From positions 1,293,244 to 1,357,243 of the forward strand of contig NC_015681.1 in assembly GCF_000217795.1 (NCBI RefSeq): DNA of 64,000 nucleotides, written 5' to 3'. Below the pieces are notes generated by a model that saw only the letters and a list, made by a program, of their open reading frames with translations, searched no databases and had not been told where the DNA came from. Made by a program: the position numbers and the translations under genes. This DNA is from Thermodesulfatator indicus DSM 15286. Its GTDB lineage: Bacteria > Desulfobacterota > Thermodesulfobacteria > Thermodesulfobacteriales > Thermodesulfatatoraceae. How positions within the stretch are numbered: position 1 is the stretch's first letter; each line of letters starts with the position of its first letter. Below are positions 13,343-59,220 of the stretch, in pieces.

Positions 13343-13681
13343 GAAACCTTTGGGAAAATTTTTATCGTAAGAGACTGCTTCGCCCATACGGGCTCGCAGT
13401 GACGAGGAAGGGAAAGGGCTCGCAGTGACAAACAGGAAAGGGCTCGCAGTGACAAGGAAGGAAAAGGACTCGCAGTGACTAAATGGTAGATGGGCCTATG
13501 GCTGATGGCTAAGGGCAGAAAAGACAACTTCGCTCCGTTTGGAGTGACAAAGCGGGAAAGGCATTGTGAGCTACGTTCCCCTTTCTCGTCATGCGAGCGA
13601 GCCGCAGGCGAGCGAAGCAATCTCGCGAGGCGACCTAGTCGCCGGATCTATCTGTGTTTTTGTGAATTTTGTAAAGGTCTA
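13343..13681. repeat. non-autonomous IS-related repeat, copy A
   Basis: This element fills most of the 512-bp gap between rimM and acs. The left end is GAAACCTTTGGGAAAA, then AAGAGACTGCTTCGCCC. The right end reads TTTTGTAAAGGTCT. Both resemble the 15-bp terminal sequence of the IS at 43636-44857, with drift. The interior has three tandem GGGCTCGCAGTGAC-type units and a CGCGAGGCGACCTAGTCGCC stretch. No gene is credible inside it. Confidence 0.7.
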
Positions 13682-34973: not shown

Positions 34974-35168
34974 GAGACTTTGCAAAGTTTAAAAAACATA
35001 GATAGATTGCCACGGCGACTATGTCGCCTCGCGAGAGAGATTGCTTCGCTGCTGGGTGCAGTCTCGCAATGACTCTTTTAAGATGTTACTGTGAGCCCTT
35101 TCCAGTTTGTCACTGCGAGCCCTTATGGGCGAAGCAGTCTCTTAAGTATGGCATTTTGCAAAGATCTC
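34974..35168. repeat. non-autonomous IS-related repeat, copy B
   Basis: A 195-bp element with both ends: left GAGACTTTGCAAAG followed by TTTAAAAAACATAGATAG, right TTTTGCAAAGATCTC. The interior contains GCCACGGCGACTATGTCGCC and several GAAGCAGTCTC / CACTGCGAGCC units. Its left end and interior are nearly the reverse complement of copy H at 58971-59143. Confidence 0.8.
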
Positions 35169-35522: not shown

Positions 35523-35816
35523 TTGGAAAGAATCGTTGAGATAAAACTTTTAGACCAGGTTTTTGCCTTTAAGACCGATCTTCCTGAAGAAATGGTAGAG
35601 GAGATCAGGGAAATTATTTCTGAAAAAGAAAATGAAATTCGGAAAAAGTATCATCTTTTGCCACCACTTAAAGTGGCTGTTCTTCTCCTCTTACAAATTT
35701 CTTCAGAATATGTAAAAATAAAAAAGGAGCACGAAGAACTTAAAGAGGCCTTGTTAAAAAAGGCCTCGGAATTAGACGAATATTTGAAAGAGGTTCCCTG
35801 GGGTGCGCGTGATTAA
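35523..35816 (+). CDS. zapA: cell division protein ZapA
   Basis: FtsZ-associated protein of 97 residues. The N-terminal ZapA fold contains ERIVEIKLLDQVFAFKTDLPEE and is followed by a C-terminal coiled coil. Translation appears to start at TTG. The 3' end overlaps the 5' end of the 6S RNA, and zapA followed by ssrS is a conserved order in proteobacteria, which supports both calls. Confidence 0.85.
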   Translation: MERIVEIKLLDQVFAFKTDLPEEMVEEIREIISEKENEIRKKYHLLPPLKVAVLLLLQISSEYVKIKKEHEELKEALLKKASELDEYLKEVPWGARD

Positions 35817-35972
35817 CCAATTAGCCCGCCGAGCCAACAGCGAGACCAGGGGGAGGCTCCTCTCCTTCCGGAGGTATGCTCCGCTTTGGCGGAGAAACCG
35901 CAAGGAAGGACGAGCCGCCCACTTAAAAGTGAGGGTCTCGTGCGGGCCGGTTAACACGGCACCCTGGGGTTT
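35794..35972 (+). ncRNA. ssrS: 6S RNA
   Basis: About 178 nt that fold into one long interrupted hairpin. CCCTGGGGTGC near the 5' end pairs toward GGCACCCTGGGG at the 3' end. GTG-A-TTAACC pairs with GGTTAACAC, GCCCGC-CGAG with CTCG-T-GCGGGC, and the apical part holds CTCCGC-TTTG-GCGGAG flanked by CCTTCC/GGAAGG. This is the 6S RNA shape, which mimics an open promoter and binds sigma-70 RNA polymerase. Position directly after zapA is canonical. Ends are approximate. Confidence 0.9.
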
Positions 35973-35980
35973 AAATTTAT

Positions 35981-39288: not shown

Positions 39289-39635
39289 AAGATCTTTGCA
39301 GAATCTAGAAAATATAAATTGAAATTGCTTCCTTTGTCACGGTGAGCCTTTACCCTCTTGTCACGGTGAGCCCTTTCCTTCTTTGTCACTGCGAGGAGCC
39401 GAAGGTGACGAAGCAGTCTCATGAGCCACCAACCATCAGCCATCGACCATCTACCAGTTGCCATTTAGTCACTGCGAGCCCCATTTTTCCCTGTCACTGC
39501 GAGCCCGCAAGGGCGAAGCAGTCTCTATAATATAAAAAGAAAAGCTTAAAATTGGTAGCCTCAGAACTTTTCGCCCTTACGGCTTGTACTGAGAGCCTTA
39601 CTCATTGCGAGCCACGAAGGGCAAAGTAAATCTAT
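39289..39635. repeat. dispersed-repeat region D
   Basis: Begins with AAGATCTTTGCAGAA, a drifted terminal sequence of the IS-related family, and contains four to five CACTGCGAGCC / GAAGCAGTCTC units plus in-phase GCCATCA-type heptamers at 39425-39468. No clear right terminus was found. No gene. Confidence 0.6.
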
Positions 39636-43635: not shown

Positions 43636-44857
43636 GAGACCTTTGCAAAATTTGTTGAATAGTAATATTTCTCATGATAAATCTACTTAAAAACTAAAGG
43701 AGCTTCATTTATGTTCAGAGAAAATAATACAAATCTAACTATAGGCGAACATCTTATCTATCAAAACTTACCTGATGACATCTTGGCTCGTATCAATAAA
43801 CTCATCAATTGGGATCCTTTTCAACAAATCCTCGTTTCTCTTCATCCTTCTAAAGTTGGACGCAAGGCTTATAACCCCGTCCAGATGCTAAAAATCCTCA
43901 TCATTCAACAAATCTACGGCCACTCTGACCCGGAAATGGAACTTATGCTCAAAGGCAACCTCTTCTACCGTCGCTTCCTTGGCCTCTCTGCTATTGACCC
44001 CGTTCCTGACCACTCTACTATATCTCGCTTCCGTTCTGATCTCAAATCCTTGAACCTTTATCGTAGGTGCTTTGAAGAACTTAAACGCCAGCTCGCTCAG
44101 AAGGGTTTTGAACTTCGCTCTGGCAAAATCATTGATGCTCGTCTGGTTAAAGCGGCTAGACGTCCTGGCAAGGATGACGATGCCTCCTTTACCCAAAAAG
44201 GCAAAAAGACTGACTACGGCTACAAAGACCATATTGCTATTGACGTTAAAAATGAGTTTGTTTCAGAGTTCGTTTGCACACCAGCTAACGTGCACGATTC
44301 CCAAGTTCTTGATGAATTACTTGAAGGAGAAGAGGCAAGTGTTTTTGCAGATAAAGCTTATGATAAGCAAGAGTTAAGGAGGAGGTGTCGTAAGAAGGGG
44401 ATATTTTGTGGAGTTTTAGCAAAGGCCAGGAGGAATAGGCCCCTTTCGGCCAGACAGAAGAAGAGGAATCGAATTTTTTCTCGTATAAGGGCCAAGGTAG
44501 AGCGAGTATTTGGCATTTTTTCCTTACATCTTCAGAGGGAGAAGGCGAGATATGTGGGACTATTTGCCAACGAAATTCATTTATTTTTAACCTGTTTTAC
44601 GTATAATCTTTTGAATTTAGCGTGGCAGATGAAGAGGAAGGAGGCGATTTAGGAGGAAAAGTTGAAGAGATAAAAGATAATAGGATAATACTGCGAGGAA
44701 GGAGAAAATAACAAGGAAAATGTGATTAAAACCTGGAAAAACTAAGAAATTTTGAAGGAGAAGAGAAAAGCAAAAGGGATAGAAATCAGAGATTTTTGCT
44801 TTAATGGCCAAAACGGAGAATAGAAAACAAAATTAAAATTATTTTTTCAAAGGTCTC
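43636..44857 (+). mobile_element. IS5-family insertion sequence
   Basis: A 1,222-bp element. The left end is GAGACCTTTGCAAAAT and the right end, inverted, GAGACCTTTGAAAAAAT. Both sides are flanked by six A, so the target duplication (3 or 6 bp) cannot be sized. It encodes one transposase, and about 200 bp of non-coding sequence precedes the right end. Its ends match the ends of several short repeats elsewhere in the window. Confidence 0.9.
43711..44652 (+). CDS. IS5-family DDE transposase
   Basis: Transposase of 313 residues, apparently full length and intact. The N-terminal domain contains GRKAYNPVQMLKILIIQQIYGHSDPE, and the DDE core is visible as IIDARLV (D), ADKAYDKQEL (D) and IRAKVERVFG (E), with the YKDHIAID and F-T-YNLLNL features of IS5 transposases. 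AAAGGAG precedes the ATG. It could act in trans on short elements with the same ends. Confidence 0.93.
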   Translation: MFRENNTNLTIGEHLIYQNLPDDILARINKLINWDPFQQILVSLHPSKVGRKAYNPVQMLKILIIQQIYGHSDPEMELMLKGNLFYRRFLGLSAIDPVPDHSTISRFRSDLKSLNLYRRCFEELKRQLAQKGFELRSGKIIDARLVKAARRPGKDDDASFTQKGKKTDYGYKDHIAIDVKNEFVSEFVCTPANVHDSQVLDELLEGEEASVFADKAYDKQELRRRCRKKGIFCGVLAKARRNRPLSARQKKRNRIFSRIRAKVERVFGIFSLHLQREKARYVGLFANEIHLFLTCFTYNLLNLAWQMKRKEAI

Positions 44858-50013: not shown

Positions 50014-50222
50014 TAATAATGGGGTCATTAAATAGGCGACAATTGAGTCATTGTATGGTTTTAATTTAACACTGTCATTGCGAGGTCTCGCTAGAGGCCG
50101 AAGCAATCCCAGGGACTGCTTCGTCGCCTTCGGCTCCTCGCAGTGACAGCGAAGGTTATTTCGCTTTAGCGATTATGTCAGCGGCGATACTTTGTCGTGT
50201 AAAAATCACTCAGATTAATAAT
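50014..50222 (+). repeat. long inverted repeat K, left copy
   Basis: About 205 bp starting TTAATAATGG...TAAATAGGCGACAATTGAG and ending GCTTTAGCGATTATGTCAGC...GTCGTGTAAAAA...GATTAATAA. An inverted copy lies at 52310-52516 on the other side of comM. Its central part holds GAGGCCGAAGCAATCCC units. Confidence 0.75.
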
Positions 50223-50224
50223 AA

Positions 50225-50666
50225 GAGATCTTTGCAAGATTCAAAAAACATAGATTGATCGCCACGGCGATACTTTCGCTCGCTAGTGAGCTGCTTTGGC
50301 TGCTGGCGCCTTGCGACAGAGATTCCTTCGCTAGCGCTCGGGACAGGGATTGCTTCGTTCGCCATGACTGGAAAAGGGACGGCCTTGCAATGATCCTGCT
50401 GGTCCACTTCGTCGGCCCTACGGGGCTCTTTGTAATAACATACCTTCATTGTTACTGCGAGCGAAGCGAAGCAGTCTTCGCGCCAATAACCATCAGCCAC
50501 CGGCCATTAGCCATCAGCCACCAGCCATCAGCCACCAGCCATCAGCCATCTGCCACCAGCCATCAGCCATCTGCCATTTGGTCACGGCGAGCCCTTTCCC
50601 TTCCTTGTCACTGCGAGCCCGTATGGACGAAGCAGTCTCTTAAGTATAGCCTTTTTCAAAGGTCTC
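50225..50666. repeat. non-autonomous IS-related repeat, copy F
   Basis: A 442-bp element with both ends: GAGATCTTTGCAAGA followed by TTCAAAAAACATAGATTGATC, and TTTTTCAAAGGTCTC. It contains about 13 in-phase heptamers of the GCCATCA/GCCACCA/GCCATCT type at 50489-50579. The interior is closely similar to copy G. Open frames across it are artefacts. Confidence 0.8.
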
Positions 50667-52309: not shown

Positions 52310-52516
52310 AGTTATTAATCCGAGCGTTTTTTACACGACAAAGTATCGCCGCTGACATAATCGCTAAAGCAAAGTAACCTTCGCTGTCACTGCGAGGCCT
52401 CGTTAGAGGTCGAAGCAGTCTCAGAGATCCCTTCGCTGCGCTCGGGACAAGGATTGCTTCGCTTCGCTTGCGGTGACTCAATTGTCGCCTATTTAGAGAT
52501 TCCATTAATGAGTAAA
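52310..52516 (-). repeat. long inverted repeat K, right copy
   Basis: Inverted copy of 50014-50222; both outer blocks (TAAATAGGCGACAATTGAG and GCTTTAGCGATTATGTCAGC) are retained. It occupies most of the 339-bp gap between comM and the permease. A terminal-like TTTTGCAAAAATCTC follows at 52520-52534. No gene here. Confidence 0.75.
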
Positions 52517-52585
52517 ACATTTTGCAAAAATCTCATTTGTTTATAACTACAGTCTATTTGAAGACAAAGAATGAAAAAGGGGATA

Positions 52586-53682: not shown

Positions 53683-54086
53683 TTTATTATCGGAAACGGT
53701 TTTTGCCAAAATTAAAATCATGGGTTGGGCTCGCCAAGGCGAGATTTTCGCTCGCGAGAGAGCTGCTTCGGCTGCTGACGCCTTGCGACAAAGATCCCTT
53801 CGCTAGCGCTCGGGACAGGGATTGCTTAGCCACTTCGTGGCCCGCAATGACTGGAAAAGGGACAGGCTCGCAATGGCGCTGCAGGGCTACTTTGTCGGCC
53901 CTGCGGGCTCTTCGTAATAACATACCCTCGTTGTCACTGCGAGCGGAGCGAAGCTGTCTTTTCCGCCCTTAGCCATCAGCCATCGGCCATCTGCCATTTG
54001 GTCACGGCGAACCCCTTCCCTTCCTTGTCACGGCGAGCCCGTAAGGACGAAGCAGTCTCTCAAGTATAGCGTTTTGCAAAGGTGTT
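53683..54086. repeat. non-autonomous IS-related repeat, copy G
   Basis: About 400 bp; right end TTTTGCAAAGGTGTT, left end poorly preserved (near GGTTTTTGCCAAAAT). The interior matches copy F for long stretches (GACGCCTTGCGACA, CGCTAGCGCTCGGGACAGGG). It fills the gap up to the next stop codon, which lies at the right end. Confidence 0.7.
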
Positions 54087-54778
54087 TACCTGGCATAAAA
54101 CTTCATCTCCTGTTGGGCCGGATAATCAGGCACCACACGTAAACCATCATGATATATTTTTATATGAGCCACTATCATTTGTTTATAAGCTACAGGAAAA
54201 ATCCAACTAGCTTCTGGCTCTCTAAATTCTGCAGCAGGCAAAACTTTTAAGTTTTTGACAATACCAATTAACTTTTCATTTATTTTCTGTAATGTTATTT
54301 CTGTAGATTGGGCAAAAACATGTATTCCCTTGGGAAGAGGCTCTCCATTAATAGGATTAAAATCAATTACTCCTACTACCGAATTCTGGTAAAGGATGGC
54401 CCCTTTGACTTCTATATCCCCTCTAGGGCCTCTTTTAACCCACACTTTCCCTGGGGAAAGAAAACCTTCTATTTGTTTAGCCGTAGCTACTGCTTGAGGC
54501 AAATTATTTAGTATTACAGGAACTTGCGGAGCGAGCCCCATTACCCCTGGTGGAGGTGGTGCCCCTGGTGGTGGAGGCGGTGCCCCTGGTGGAGGCGGTG
54601 CCCCTGGTGGAGGCGGTGCCCCTGGTGGAGGCGGTGCCCCTGGTGGAGGCGGTGCCCCTGGTGGAGGTTTCATGAGAACAGACTGATTTAAAACAGGAGG
54701 TAATTGATTTTGAGCTAGAACACAAACAGGGAAAAGAAAACATAAAAGCAGGATCATAACATTCAAAAATACATTCAT
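54086..54778 (-). CDS. secreted protein with PPPPGA tandem repeats
   Basis: Protein of about 230 residues from the ATG eight bases after AAAGGAG. A signal peptide covers about residues 1-22 (cleavage after VLAQ). Residues about 36-80 are some seven PPPPGA repeats encoded by 18-bp DNA units. The C-terminal 150 residues are a compact domain of unknown family, with VKRGPRGDIEVKGAILY and IFPVAYKQMIVAHIKIY. Probably a periplasmic or surface protein. Its stop codon lies at the edge of repeat copy G. Confidence 0.72.
   Translation of the reverse strand: MNVFLNVMILLLCFLFPVCVLAQNQLPPVLNQSVLMKPPPGAPPPPGAPPPPGAPPPPGAPPPPGAPPPPPGAPPPPGVMGLAPQVPVILNNLPQAVATAKQIEGFLSPGKVWVKRGPRGDIEVKGAILYQNSVVGVIDFNPINGEPLPKGIHVFAQSTEITLQKINEKLIGIVKNLKVLPAAEFREPEASWIFPVAYKQMIVAHIKIYHDGLRVVPDYPAQQEMKFYAR
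54546..54670. repeat. 18-bp tandem repeat inside the PPPPGA protein gene
   Basis: Unit GGTGGAGGCGGTGCCCCT repeated about six to seven times, with one unit extended by three bases, giving one five-proline variant. Nearly identical units suggest recent expansion by slippage. Confidence 0.9.
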
Positions 54779-56190: not shown

Positions 56191-58943
56191 TGCAAAACAG
56201 CTTTTTCTTTTTTGGGTTTGGCGCCTGGGCGGCCACAGCACTTTTTATATTTTTTACCACTACCGCAGGGGCAAGGATCATTGCGGCCGATTTTTTTGCC
56301 GCGTCTTATAGGCTGTTTTTTGGGCTTTTCTTCCCGGGTTTCTTCTCCACGGCTGTAAACCAGACGCAAAGGCTTTTTCTTTTGTTCTTCTTCTAATTTT
56401 TCTACTTCTTCTTCACGTTCAACCTGCACGCGGTAGAGGAAAGAAAGGGTTTGTTCTTTGATACGTTCAATCAAGTCCGAAAACATGGCAAAGGCTTCTC
56501 GTTTATACTCCTGTAAAGGATTTTGCTGGGCATAGCCTCTTAAGCCGATCCCCTCACGCAGGTGGTCCATGGCCAGGAGATGTTCTTTCCAGAGAGAATC
56601 AATGGTGTGCAGCAAGAACATGCGTTCAAGCTGCCTCATAGTATCCTGGCCAATTTCTTGTTCCTTTTCTTCGTAAGCTCTAAGGGCCTGTTCTGCCAGA
56701 TTTTCCGCAAGTTCTTTGGCATCAAGCAGGTCTTCTTTTATTTCAGGGCGAAAACCAAAAACACCCATGAAGCGGTCTTTAAGGCCCTCTAAATCCCAAT
56801 CAACAGGTGAGCCCTTTTCTTCACGGTATTCTTCCACTATGCCTTCGCACACATCGCGGACCATGTCGGTAATCCAGTCTCTAATATTATCGCTGGCGAG
56901 GATTTCTTTGCGCTGGCTATAGATGACCTCACGCTGTTTGTTCATTACGTCGTCGTATTCCAGTAAGTGCTTACGAATCTCAAAGTGATGGGCTTCCACC
57001 TTTTTTTGGGCCTGTTCAATAGCCTTAGACACAAAAGGATGTTCAATGGGCTCGCCTTCTTCTATACCCAGGCGATCCATGATTCCTCTTAGCTTATCTG
57101 AACCGAAAAGCCTTAAAAGATCGTCTTCAAGAGAGAGATAAAAACGTGAAGAACCAGGGTCTCCCTGTCTTCCGGCACGGCCTCGGAGCTGGTTGTCTAT
57201 GCGTCGAGATTCATGTCTTTCAGTGCCGATGATATGAAGCCCACCAAGGGCTTTTACGCGTTCGTAGTCTTCCTGGCATTCTTTTACTTTTTGGTAAAGC
57301 ACTTCAGCCCAGCGCTCAGGGAATTTCTTGGTAGGGTCTTCACCCTGGCGGGCCATCTGCAAGGCCTCATTCCAGGAAGAGGGATCAATGCTATCAAGGT
57401 CGTAACCCTCTTCAGCCAGGGTTTCTTTAGCCAGGCCTTCAGGATTTCCACCAAGAAGAATGTCAACTCCTCGGCCAGCCATGTTGGTAGCAATGGTTAC
57501 GGCTCCTGAACGGCCAGCCTGAGCAATTATGGCTGCTTCTCGCTCGTGATACTTGGCATTTAAGACCTGGTGCGGAATTTTCTTTTTCTTGAGAAGACCG
57601 GAAAGAATTTCACTATTCTCAATGCTTGTAGTACCAACGAGCACCGGGCGACCTTCACGGTGTAATTCTTCTATTTCTTCAACTACGGCGTTGAACTTTT
57701 CGCGTTTGGTGCGATAAACCACGTCGGGATGGTCCACACGAATCATGGGTTTATGGGTAGGGATAACCACCACATCAAGGTTATAAATTTCTTTGAATTC
57801 AGCGGCCTCGGTTTCAGCGGTACCCGTCATACCGGCCAGTTTTTCGTACATGCGGAAATAGTTCTGAAAAGTAATGGTAGCTAGCGTCTGGTTTTCTTTT
57901 TCAATCTTCACCCCTTCTTTGGCTTCAATGGCCTGGTGTAGGCCATCACTCCAGCGGCGGCCGGGCATTAAACGGCCGGTAAACTCATCAACAATAATGA
58001 CCTTGCCGTCTTTTACGATGTAATCCACATCACGGTGAAAGAGATGATGCGCCCGCAAGGCCTGATTTATGTGATGCACCAGGCTTATATGACGCGGGTC
58101 GTATAAATTCTCTACACCGAGGAGGCGTTCCATCTCGGCCACGCCTTCTTCGGTAAGCATGGCGCTTTTGGTCTTTTCATCAAGGGTAAAGTGAACGTCT
58201 TTTTTCAAGTGGCGGACGAGTTTGTCAATATGATAATAAATTTCAGTGGATTCTTCTGAAGGCCCGGAGATAATCAGAGGGGTTCTCGCTTCGTCAATCA
58301 AGATAGAGTCCACTTCGTCCACGATGGCGTAGTGGTGCTCGCGCTGGACCATGTCTTCCAGGGAAAACTTCATGTTATCGCGCAGGTAGTCAAAACCAAA
58401 TTCATTGTTGGTGCCGTAAGTTATGTCACTGGCATAGGCACGTTTGCGTTCCTCTTCGTTCATGCCAGAGACAATTACGCCTACGGAAAGGCCAAGAAAA
58501 TTGTACAAAGTGCCCATCCACTTGGCGTCTCTTTTGGCGAGATAATCGTTTACGGTAACAATATGCACACCTTTTCCGGTAAGAGCGTTTAAGTACGCCG
58601 GGAGAGTGGCTACAAGGGTTTTTCCTTCACCGGTTTTCATTTCGGCGATTTTCCCTTCGTGAAGGACGATACCGCCCATGAGCTGGACGTCATAATGGCG
58701 CATTCCCAGCACCCGGCGGCTGGCTTCACGCACCACGGCAAAGGCCTCTGGCAGCAAGCTATCAAGGCTTTCTCCCCGGTCAAGGCGTTCTTTAAATTCC
58801 TGGGTCTTGGCCTTAAGTTCGGCGTCAGATAACTTCTGGATTTGTGGCTCAAGCGCGTTTATTTTGGCCACAATCGGCTTTAGCCGCTTAATTTCTCTTT
58901 CGTTTTTGGTTCCTACGATTTTAGCTAAAATTTTGGTAAACAT
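56187..58943 (-). CDS. secA: protein translocase ATPase SecA
   Basis: Motor of the Sec pathway, 918 residues. Walker [30 protein letters not shown] for Walker B, the preprotein cross-linking domain, [12 protein letters not shown] in the second helicase domain, and a C-terminal zinc tail [14 protein letters not shown]. All standard domains are complete. It is monocistronic, with repeat copy H directly upstream. Confidence 0.97.
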
Positions 58944-58970
58944 ATCAATCCTCTATTACTGATTCTTTTT

Positions 58971-59143
58971 GAGACCTTTCCAAAATGTTATACCCAAGAG
59001 ACTGCTTCGCCCATAAAGGGCTCACAGTGACACCCTAAAGAGTCATTGCGAGGCTGCGCCTAGCAGCCGAAGCAATCTCTATCGCGAGGCGACATAGTCG
59101 CCGTGGCAATCTATCTATGTTTTTTAAACTTTGCAAAGGTCTC
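58971..59143. repeat. non-autonomous IS-related repeat, copy H
   Basis: A 173-bp element with both ends: GAGACCTTTCCAAAA, and CTTTGCAAAGGTCTC preceded by CTATGTTTTTTAAA. T5-T6 tracts flank both sides. Interior GCGAGGCGACATAGTCGCCGTGG matches copy B in inverse orientation. Confidence 0.85.
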
Positions 59144-59220
59144 TTTTTTAATAAGTTTTGTTTACATTAAACAGCTTTCTTGGAATTATGGCAAGAAGGA
59201 GCGCAAAAACACGGACTCTT

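What the first reader, a model, noticed from the sequence alone, without database searches (positions are those of the whole stretch)
58971..59143. Short repeats share a two-ended architecture with distinct X and Y ends
In copies A, B, F and H one end is GAGACCTTTGCAAAA-like followed by a TATAC..AAGAGACTGCTTCG block, and the other is GAGACCTTTGCAAAG-like followed by TTTAAAAAACATAGAT and a GCCACGGCGA block. Copies B and H are near-identical in opposite orientations, while F and G have longer interiors. A fixed asymmetric pair of ends with variable interior is what a transposable family with internal expansion would show; simple hairpin-type REP sequences would not give this.
Basis: seen in the sequence. 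Interest (0 to 1): 0.6.

Follow-up and report, generated by a model that had tools for sequence, protein, structure and literature searches.

The report
IS5-type MITE with REP-like hairpin core
The repeat is a small transposon that makes no protein of its own; it has about 54 two-ended copies in this heat-loving bacterium, almost certainly moved by the enzyme of a full-size insertion sequence found 14 kb away, and close parallels are already described in other bacteria.

Summary
Window 58971-59143 is a 173-bp element bounded by inverted GAGACCTTTgCAAA ends, with distinct X and Y subterminal blocks. Across the 2.32-Mb genome, end models found 54 convergent pairs and every one is X-Y; shuffled labels give 27. 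Elements run 139-539 bp, plus three of 1.4-1.5 kb that carry a nested IS110. They have 5-6 bp AT-rich target duplications, and a congeneric genome has an empty site exactly here. The likely mover is in the window: a 1,222-bp IS5-group insertion sequence (43636-44857) with the same termini and an intact 313-aa transposase, five full-length copies in the genome. The element is therefore a MITE. The architecture is known: BrickBuilt in Porphyromonas gingivalis and ATR in Neisseria share this terminus (ISNme1: GAGACCTTTGCAAAA), and BrickBuilt has distinct leader and tail around a variable core. Side finding: nine IS110-family copies all sit at GTCATTG^CGAG of the REP-like hairpins, three inside these MITEs, and carry a bridge-RNA-like leader that matches that target.

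The parts
58971..59143 (+). MITE copy H, X-to-Y orientation, 173 bp
   Evidence: convergent TIRs; X-Y model pair; empty site in congener G007
58971..58984 (+). left TIR, X end (GAGACCTTTCCAAA)
   Evidence: one mismatch to the left end of the IS5-group IS
59130..59143 (-). right TIR, Y end (GAGACCTTTGCAAA)
   Evidence: identical to the left end of the IS5-group IS
58971..59031 (+). X subterminal block (TIR, AT-rich leader, inverted REP-like hairpin)
   Evidence: model R1 match, 61.4 bits
59089..59143 (-). Y subterminal block (TIR, TTTAAAAAACATAGAT, GCCACGGCGAC hairpin arm)
   Evidence: model R2 match, 60.2 bits
59001..59028 (+). REP-like hairpin 1 (CTGC..GCCC/GGGC..GCAG type)
59045..59076 (+). 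REP-like hairpin 2 (ATTGCGAGGCTGC..GCAGCCGAAGCAAT); in other copies IS110 inserts here at ATTG^CGAG
59081..59110 (+). REP-like hairpin 3 (ATCGCGAGGCGAC..GTCGCCGTGGCAAT), with compensatory stem changes among copies
58966..58970 (+). left copy of putative target-site duplication TTTTT (weak here: low-complexity T run)
59144..59148 (+). right copy of putative target-site duplication TTTTT
43636..44857 (+). IS5-group insertion sequence, 1222 bp, same TIRs, flanked by AAAAAA; proposed source of transposase in trans
43711..44652 (+). IS5-group transposase, 313 aa (PF05598 + PF01609; NF033581 equivalog)
34974..35168 (-). MITE copy B (Y-to-X on + strand), 195 bp
13343..13681 (+). MITE copy with expanded interior, X-Y, 339 bp
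50225..50666 (-). MITE copy with expanded interior including a CCATCAG-type minisatellite, Y-X, 442 bp
39290..39535 (-). decayed MITE copy, Y-X
53702..54085 (-). decayed MITE copy (strong X end, weak Y end)

Best explanation
The element is a non-autonomous IS5-group transposon (a MITE). Shown: two 14-17 bp inverted termini matching those of a resident full-length IS; a fixed X end and a fixed Y end in every pair found; 5-6 bp AT-rich target duplications; an empty orthologous site; a non-coding core of REP-like hairpins that varies in length. Inferred: the IS5-group transposase recognises the shared termini, excises or copies the whole X-Y unit, and inserts it into A/T-rich sites, with staggered cuts producing the 5-6 bp duplication. 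The asymmetric subterminal blocks descend from one founder unit amplified whole. Length variation comes later, by duplication, deletion or insertion (including IS110) among the core hairpins and minisatellites.
For: 54/54 convergent end pairs are X-Y (label shuffle mean 27.3, maximum 42 in 10,000). Exact 5-bp flanking duplications in 9 of 34 intact-ended copies versus 1.1 expected, and 6-bp in 3 versus 0.36. Flanks are 85% A+T against 68% further out. In G007 (same genus) 18 bp replace window 58957-59151, with homologous flanks on both sides. IS5-group IS with the same TIR at 43636-44857 and four more full-length copies, 98-100% identical at protein level; one copy has TSD TCTTCC and one is flanked by AAAAAA. 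IS relatives in the genus and order keep GAGACCTTTG-type ends. Literature: ISNme1 TIR GAGACCTTTGCAAAA, with ATR and BrickBuilt as MITEs on it (PMC4596501).
Against: MITE and IS share no sequence beyond about 17 bp, so the MITE is not an internal-deletion derivative of this IS, and the pairing of mover and moved rests on termini alone. 16 of 34 intact-ended copies show no exact duplication, which fits age or rearrangement but is not proof. Three of the five full IS copies also lack a clear duplication. 55 end hits lack a partner. At 58971 itself the duplication is a T run and could be chance. The congener G007, which has relatives of the MITE, holds only a degraded, 48%-identical transposase.
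Confidence: 0.93

Rival explanations
1. REP/BIME-type repeats spread by a REP-associated tyrosine (Y1) transposase: the hairpins are the mobile part and the TIR-like ends are incidental.
For: Hairpins are conserved, with some compensatory changes, and the genome has about 16 Y1-transposase ORFs. Similar hairpins occur in distant genomes of the phylum at the hairpin part of the query only.
Against: From general knowledge, Y1 transposases make no target duplications and do not need 14-bp inverted termini, yet both are present. X-Y pairing is 54/54. X/Y matches lie near only 4 of the 16 Y1 loci.
Confidence: 0.05
2. Immobile structured repeats amplified by recombination or gene conversion, not by transposition.
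For: Interiors vary and decay; many ends are unpaired.
Against: Precise boundaries, duplications and an empty orthologous site.
Confidence: 0.02

Closest known systems
BrickBuilt MITE of Porphyromonas gingivalis (PMC4596501)
   Same: TIR GAGACCTTTGCA on its best copies, distinct leader and tail, variable repetitive core, TIR match to resident IS5-family elements
   Different: core there is a 23-nt minisatellite, here mostly REP-like hairpins with occasional minisatellite; 19 copies there, about 54 paired copies here; sequences not compared directly here
ATR (AT-rich repeat) MITE of Neisseria with ISNme1 (described in PMC4596501)
   Same: parent ISNme1 has TIR GAGACCTTTGCAAAA, identical to this element's consensus; ATR is reported as often associated with REP2 repeats
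   Different: interior sequence and host; compared through the paper only
REP/BIME/REPIN elements with RAYT
   Same: interior hairpins in inverted and direct arrangement; IS110 elements insert into them
   Different: bounded by TIRs and target duplications; not consistently flanking the genome's Y1 transposases

Membership tests
IS5-family MITE | TIRs matching a full-length IS5-family element | tested here: met
   IS at 43636-44857, NF033581 247.8 bits over a cut-off of 140; shared TIRs
IS5-family MITE | short, no transposase of its own | tested here: met
   139-539 bp for 51 of 54 pairs; the three long ones are interrupted by IS110
IS5-family MITE | target-site duplication | tested here: met
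   5-bp 9/34 versus 1.1 expected, 6-bp 3/34 versus 0.36
IS5-family MITE | insertion polymorphism between related genomes | tested here: met
   empty site in G007
IS5-family MITE | mobilised in trans by the IS transposase | not testable with these tools
   needs an experiment
Internal-deletion derivative of the resident IS | sequence identity to the IS beyond the TIR | tested here: not met
   identity stops after about 17 bp
REP/REPIN moved by RAYT | hairpin palindrome, high copy | tested here: met
REP/REPIN moved by RAYT | REPs flanking the Y1 transposase gene | tested here: not met
   16 Y1 loci; only 4 have any X/Y match nearby
IS110 family with bridge RNA (side finding) | structured RNA next to the gene whose loops match target and donor | tested here: met
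   fold z -7.3; GAGUCAUGG and UCGCAA loops, CAGUAU and GUAUACAAG loops; sites GTCATTG^CGAG in 9/9 copies; loops read by eye, not confirmed experimentally

The most novel reading that the evidence does not exclude
The MITE is a vehicle that multiplied REP-like hairpins across the genome, and those hairpins became the programmed landing site of an IS110 element whose bridge RNA matches them: three unrelated mobile systems (IS5-type, REP-like, IS110) nested in one another. Some MITE copies, such as this one 27 bp upstream of the secA start codon, may also alter expression of the neighbouring gene.
Probability: 0.3. Interest if true: 0.45.

Novelty: new member of a known kind. Interest (0 to 1): 0.27.

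Why it matters
It adds a well-bounded MITE family in a thermophile to the GAGACCTTTGCAAA group (ISNme1/ATR, BrickBuilt). It shows that asymmetric leader/tail MITEs with variable cores recur in distant phyla with the same termini. It also gives a natural candidate for an IS110 bridge RNA aimed at hairpins carried by another mobile element.

Tried and rejected
Internal-deletion origin from the resident IS was rejected because homology stops at about 17 bp. A REP/RAYT-only origin was rejected because of TIRs, TSDs and weak linkage to Y1 loci. A promoter or terminator inside the MITE found no support: no promoter-like or terminator-like pattern falls within 58971-59143. Rfam gave nothing for the element. 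Literature searches for the hairpin string gave only unrelated hits. The host name could not be confirmed from a paper.

Full report
What is there. Window 58971-59143 is a 173-bp element with inverted termini GAGACCTTTCCAAA / GAGACCTTTGCAAA. The window lies at C1:1293244-1357243 of a complete 2,322,224-bp genome.

Ends and pairing. X ends (24 copies) and Y ends (20 copies) were aligned, turned into sequence-only models and searched over the whole genome. Keeping X hits up to about 5e-7 (97) and Y hits up to 0.006 (66, a few short fragments left out by hand), convergent hits 70-1700 bp apart form 54 pairs, and all 54 are X with Y, 30 in one orientation and 24 in the other; shuffled labels give a mean of 27.3. 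The training copies had been chosen by paired termini, so part of the pairs are not independent of the models, but none of the additional pairs is X-X or Y-Y. 43 X and 12 Y hits remain unpaired. A weaker search over the 46 of these that lie in fetched sequence found an opposite-type partner for 10, a same-type partial match for 8 and none for 28, consistent with decay and truncation. One TIR-bounded X-X arrangement exists, at C1:2211954-2212614, where a complete X-Y copy is followed by a further X end.

Mobility. Of 34 copies with both termini recognisable, 9 have a 5-bp and 3 a 6-bp exact duplication of the flank (expected 1.1 and 0.36), with A/T-rich targets. Examples: C1:169478 TAAAAC, C1:1372400 TAAATT, C1:815879 ATTAC. 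In G007, another species of the genus, homologous sequence continues across the site with 18 bp in place of the 195 bp at 58957-59151, so this copy arrived after the two lineages split or was lost in G007. Recognisable X and Y ends were found only in this genome and, diverged, in G007 among eleven relatives searched.

Likely mover. At 43636-44857 lies a 1,222-bp IS with the same TIR and a 313-aa DDE transposase (PF05598, PF01609; NF033581 IS5 family). Five full-length and two partial copies are in the genome. Related IS in the genus and order keep the same kind of termini. Beyond about 17 bp the IS and the MITE differ, so the MITE is related to the IS by termini only.

Interior. The core consists of three hairpins of one REP-like type, TGCGAG-stem-loop-stem-GAAGCA or variants, the X-proximal one inverted relative to the others. 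The single-strand DNA fold of copy H is better than every shuffle (z -4.76); part of that comes from pairing of the two TIRs. Across 13 short copies 96.1% of pair cells are standard pairs, three pairs have changes on both sides, and nine cells are compensatory (shuffle mean 3.5); most pairs simply do not vary, and the number of pairs with double changes does not exceed the shuffles. Longer copies contain extra hairpins and minisatellites. Three copies are interrupted by an IS110-family element.

Comparison. PMC4596501 reports that ISNme1 has TIR GAGACCTTTGCAAAA, that ATR of Neisseria is its proposed MITE, and that BrickBuilt of P. gingivalis has the same TIR core with distinct leader and tail and a variable repetitive core. 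The present family is a new member of that kind. PMC1525189 shows that REP sequences are targets of IS110 elements, and PMC11208160 gives the bridge-RNA logic.

Side finding. Nine IS110-family copies all sit between GTCATTG and CGAG. The 241-nt upstream region folds with z -7.3 and its loops read GAGUCAUGG and UCGCAA, the first like the left target (one mismatch) and the second complementary to the right target, with CAGUAU and GUAUACAAG corresponding to the element's own ends. This was read by eye on one fold and is not tested further.

Context. The element lies 27 bp upstream of the secA start codon at 58943 on the minus strand (secA named from its sequence, not by a family search). No promoter-like or terminator-like pattern falls inside it, so an effect on secA is open.

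Noticed in passing
L193-L201 (C1:82098, 448528, 757360, 816079, 894456, 963380, 1815419, 1832275, 2254493): Nine copies of a ~1.24-kb IS110-family element, all inserted at GTCATTG^CGAG of REP-like hairpins, with a bridge-RNA-like upstream region whose loops match target and donor.
   Followed up: partly
L130-L145: About 16 similar Y1-transposase (RAYT-like, 'MPRIPRFFMNDPRAAYHVISRTALPGH') ORFs in one genome, a large number; their upstream translations share a GQAKK/GTGKK..RR stretch, suggesting their own flanking repeat.
   Followed up: partly
50017-50050 and 52474-52507: A variant leader TAATGG..TCA.TAAATAGGCGACAATTGAGTCA that at 52534 follows an X-type TIR and leader; similar sequence also flanks two IS110 copies (L194, L201).
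   Followed up: partly
58941-58971: The MITE stands 27 bp upstream of the secA ATG, separating the gene from upstream sequence conserved in the congener.
   Followed up: partly
35792-35974: 6S RNA (Rfam RF00013, 85 bits).
   Followed up: no
54530-54685: 18-bp tandem repeats GGTGGAGGCGGTGCCCCT, possibly a coding repeat.
   Followed up: no
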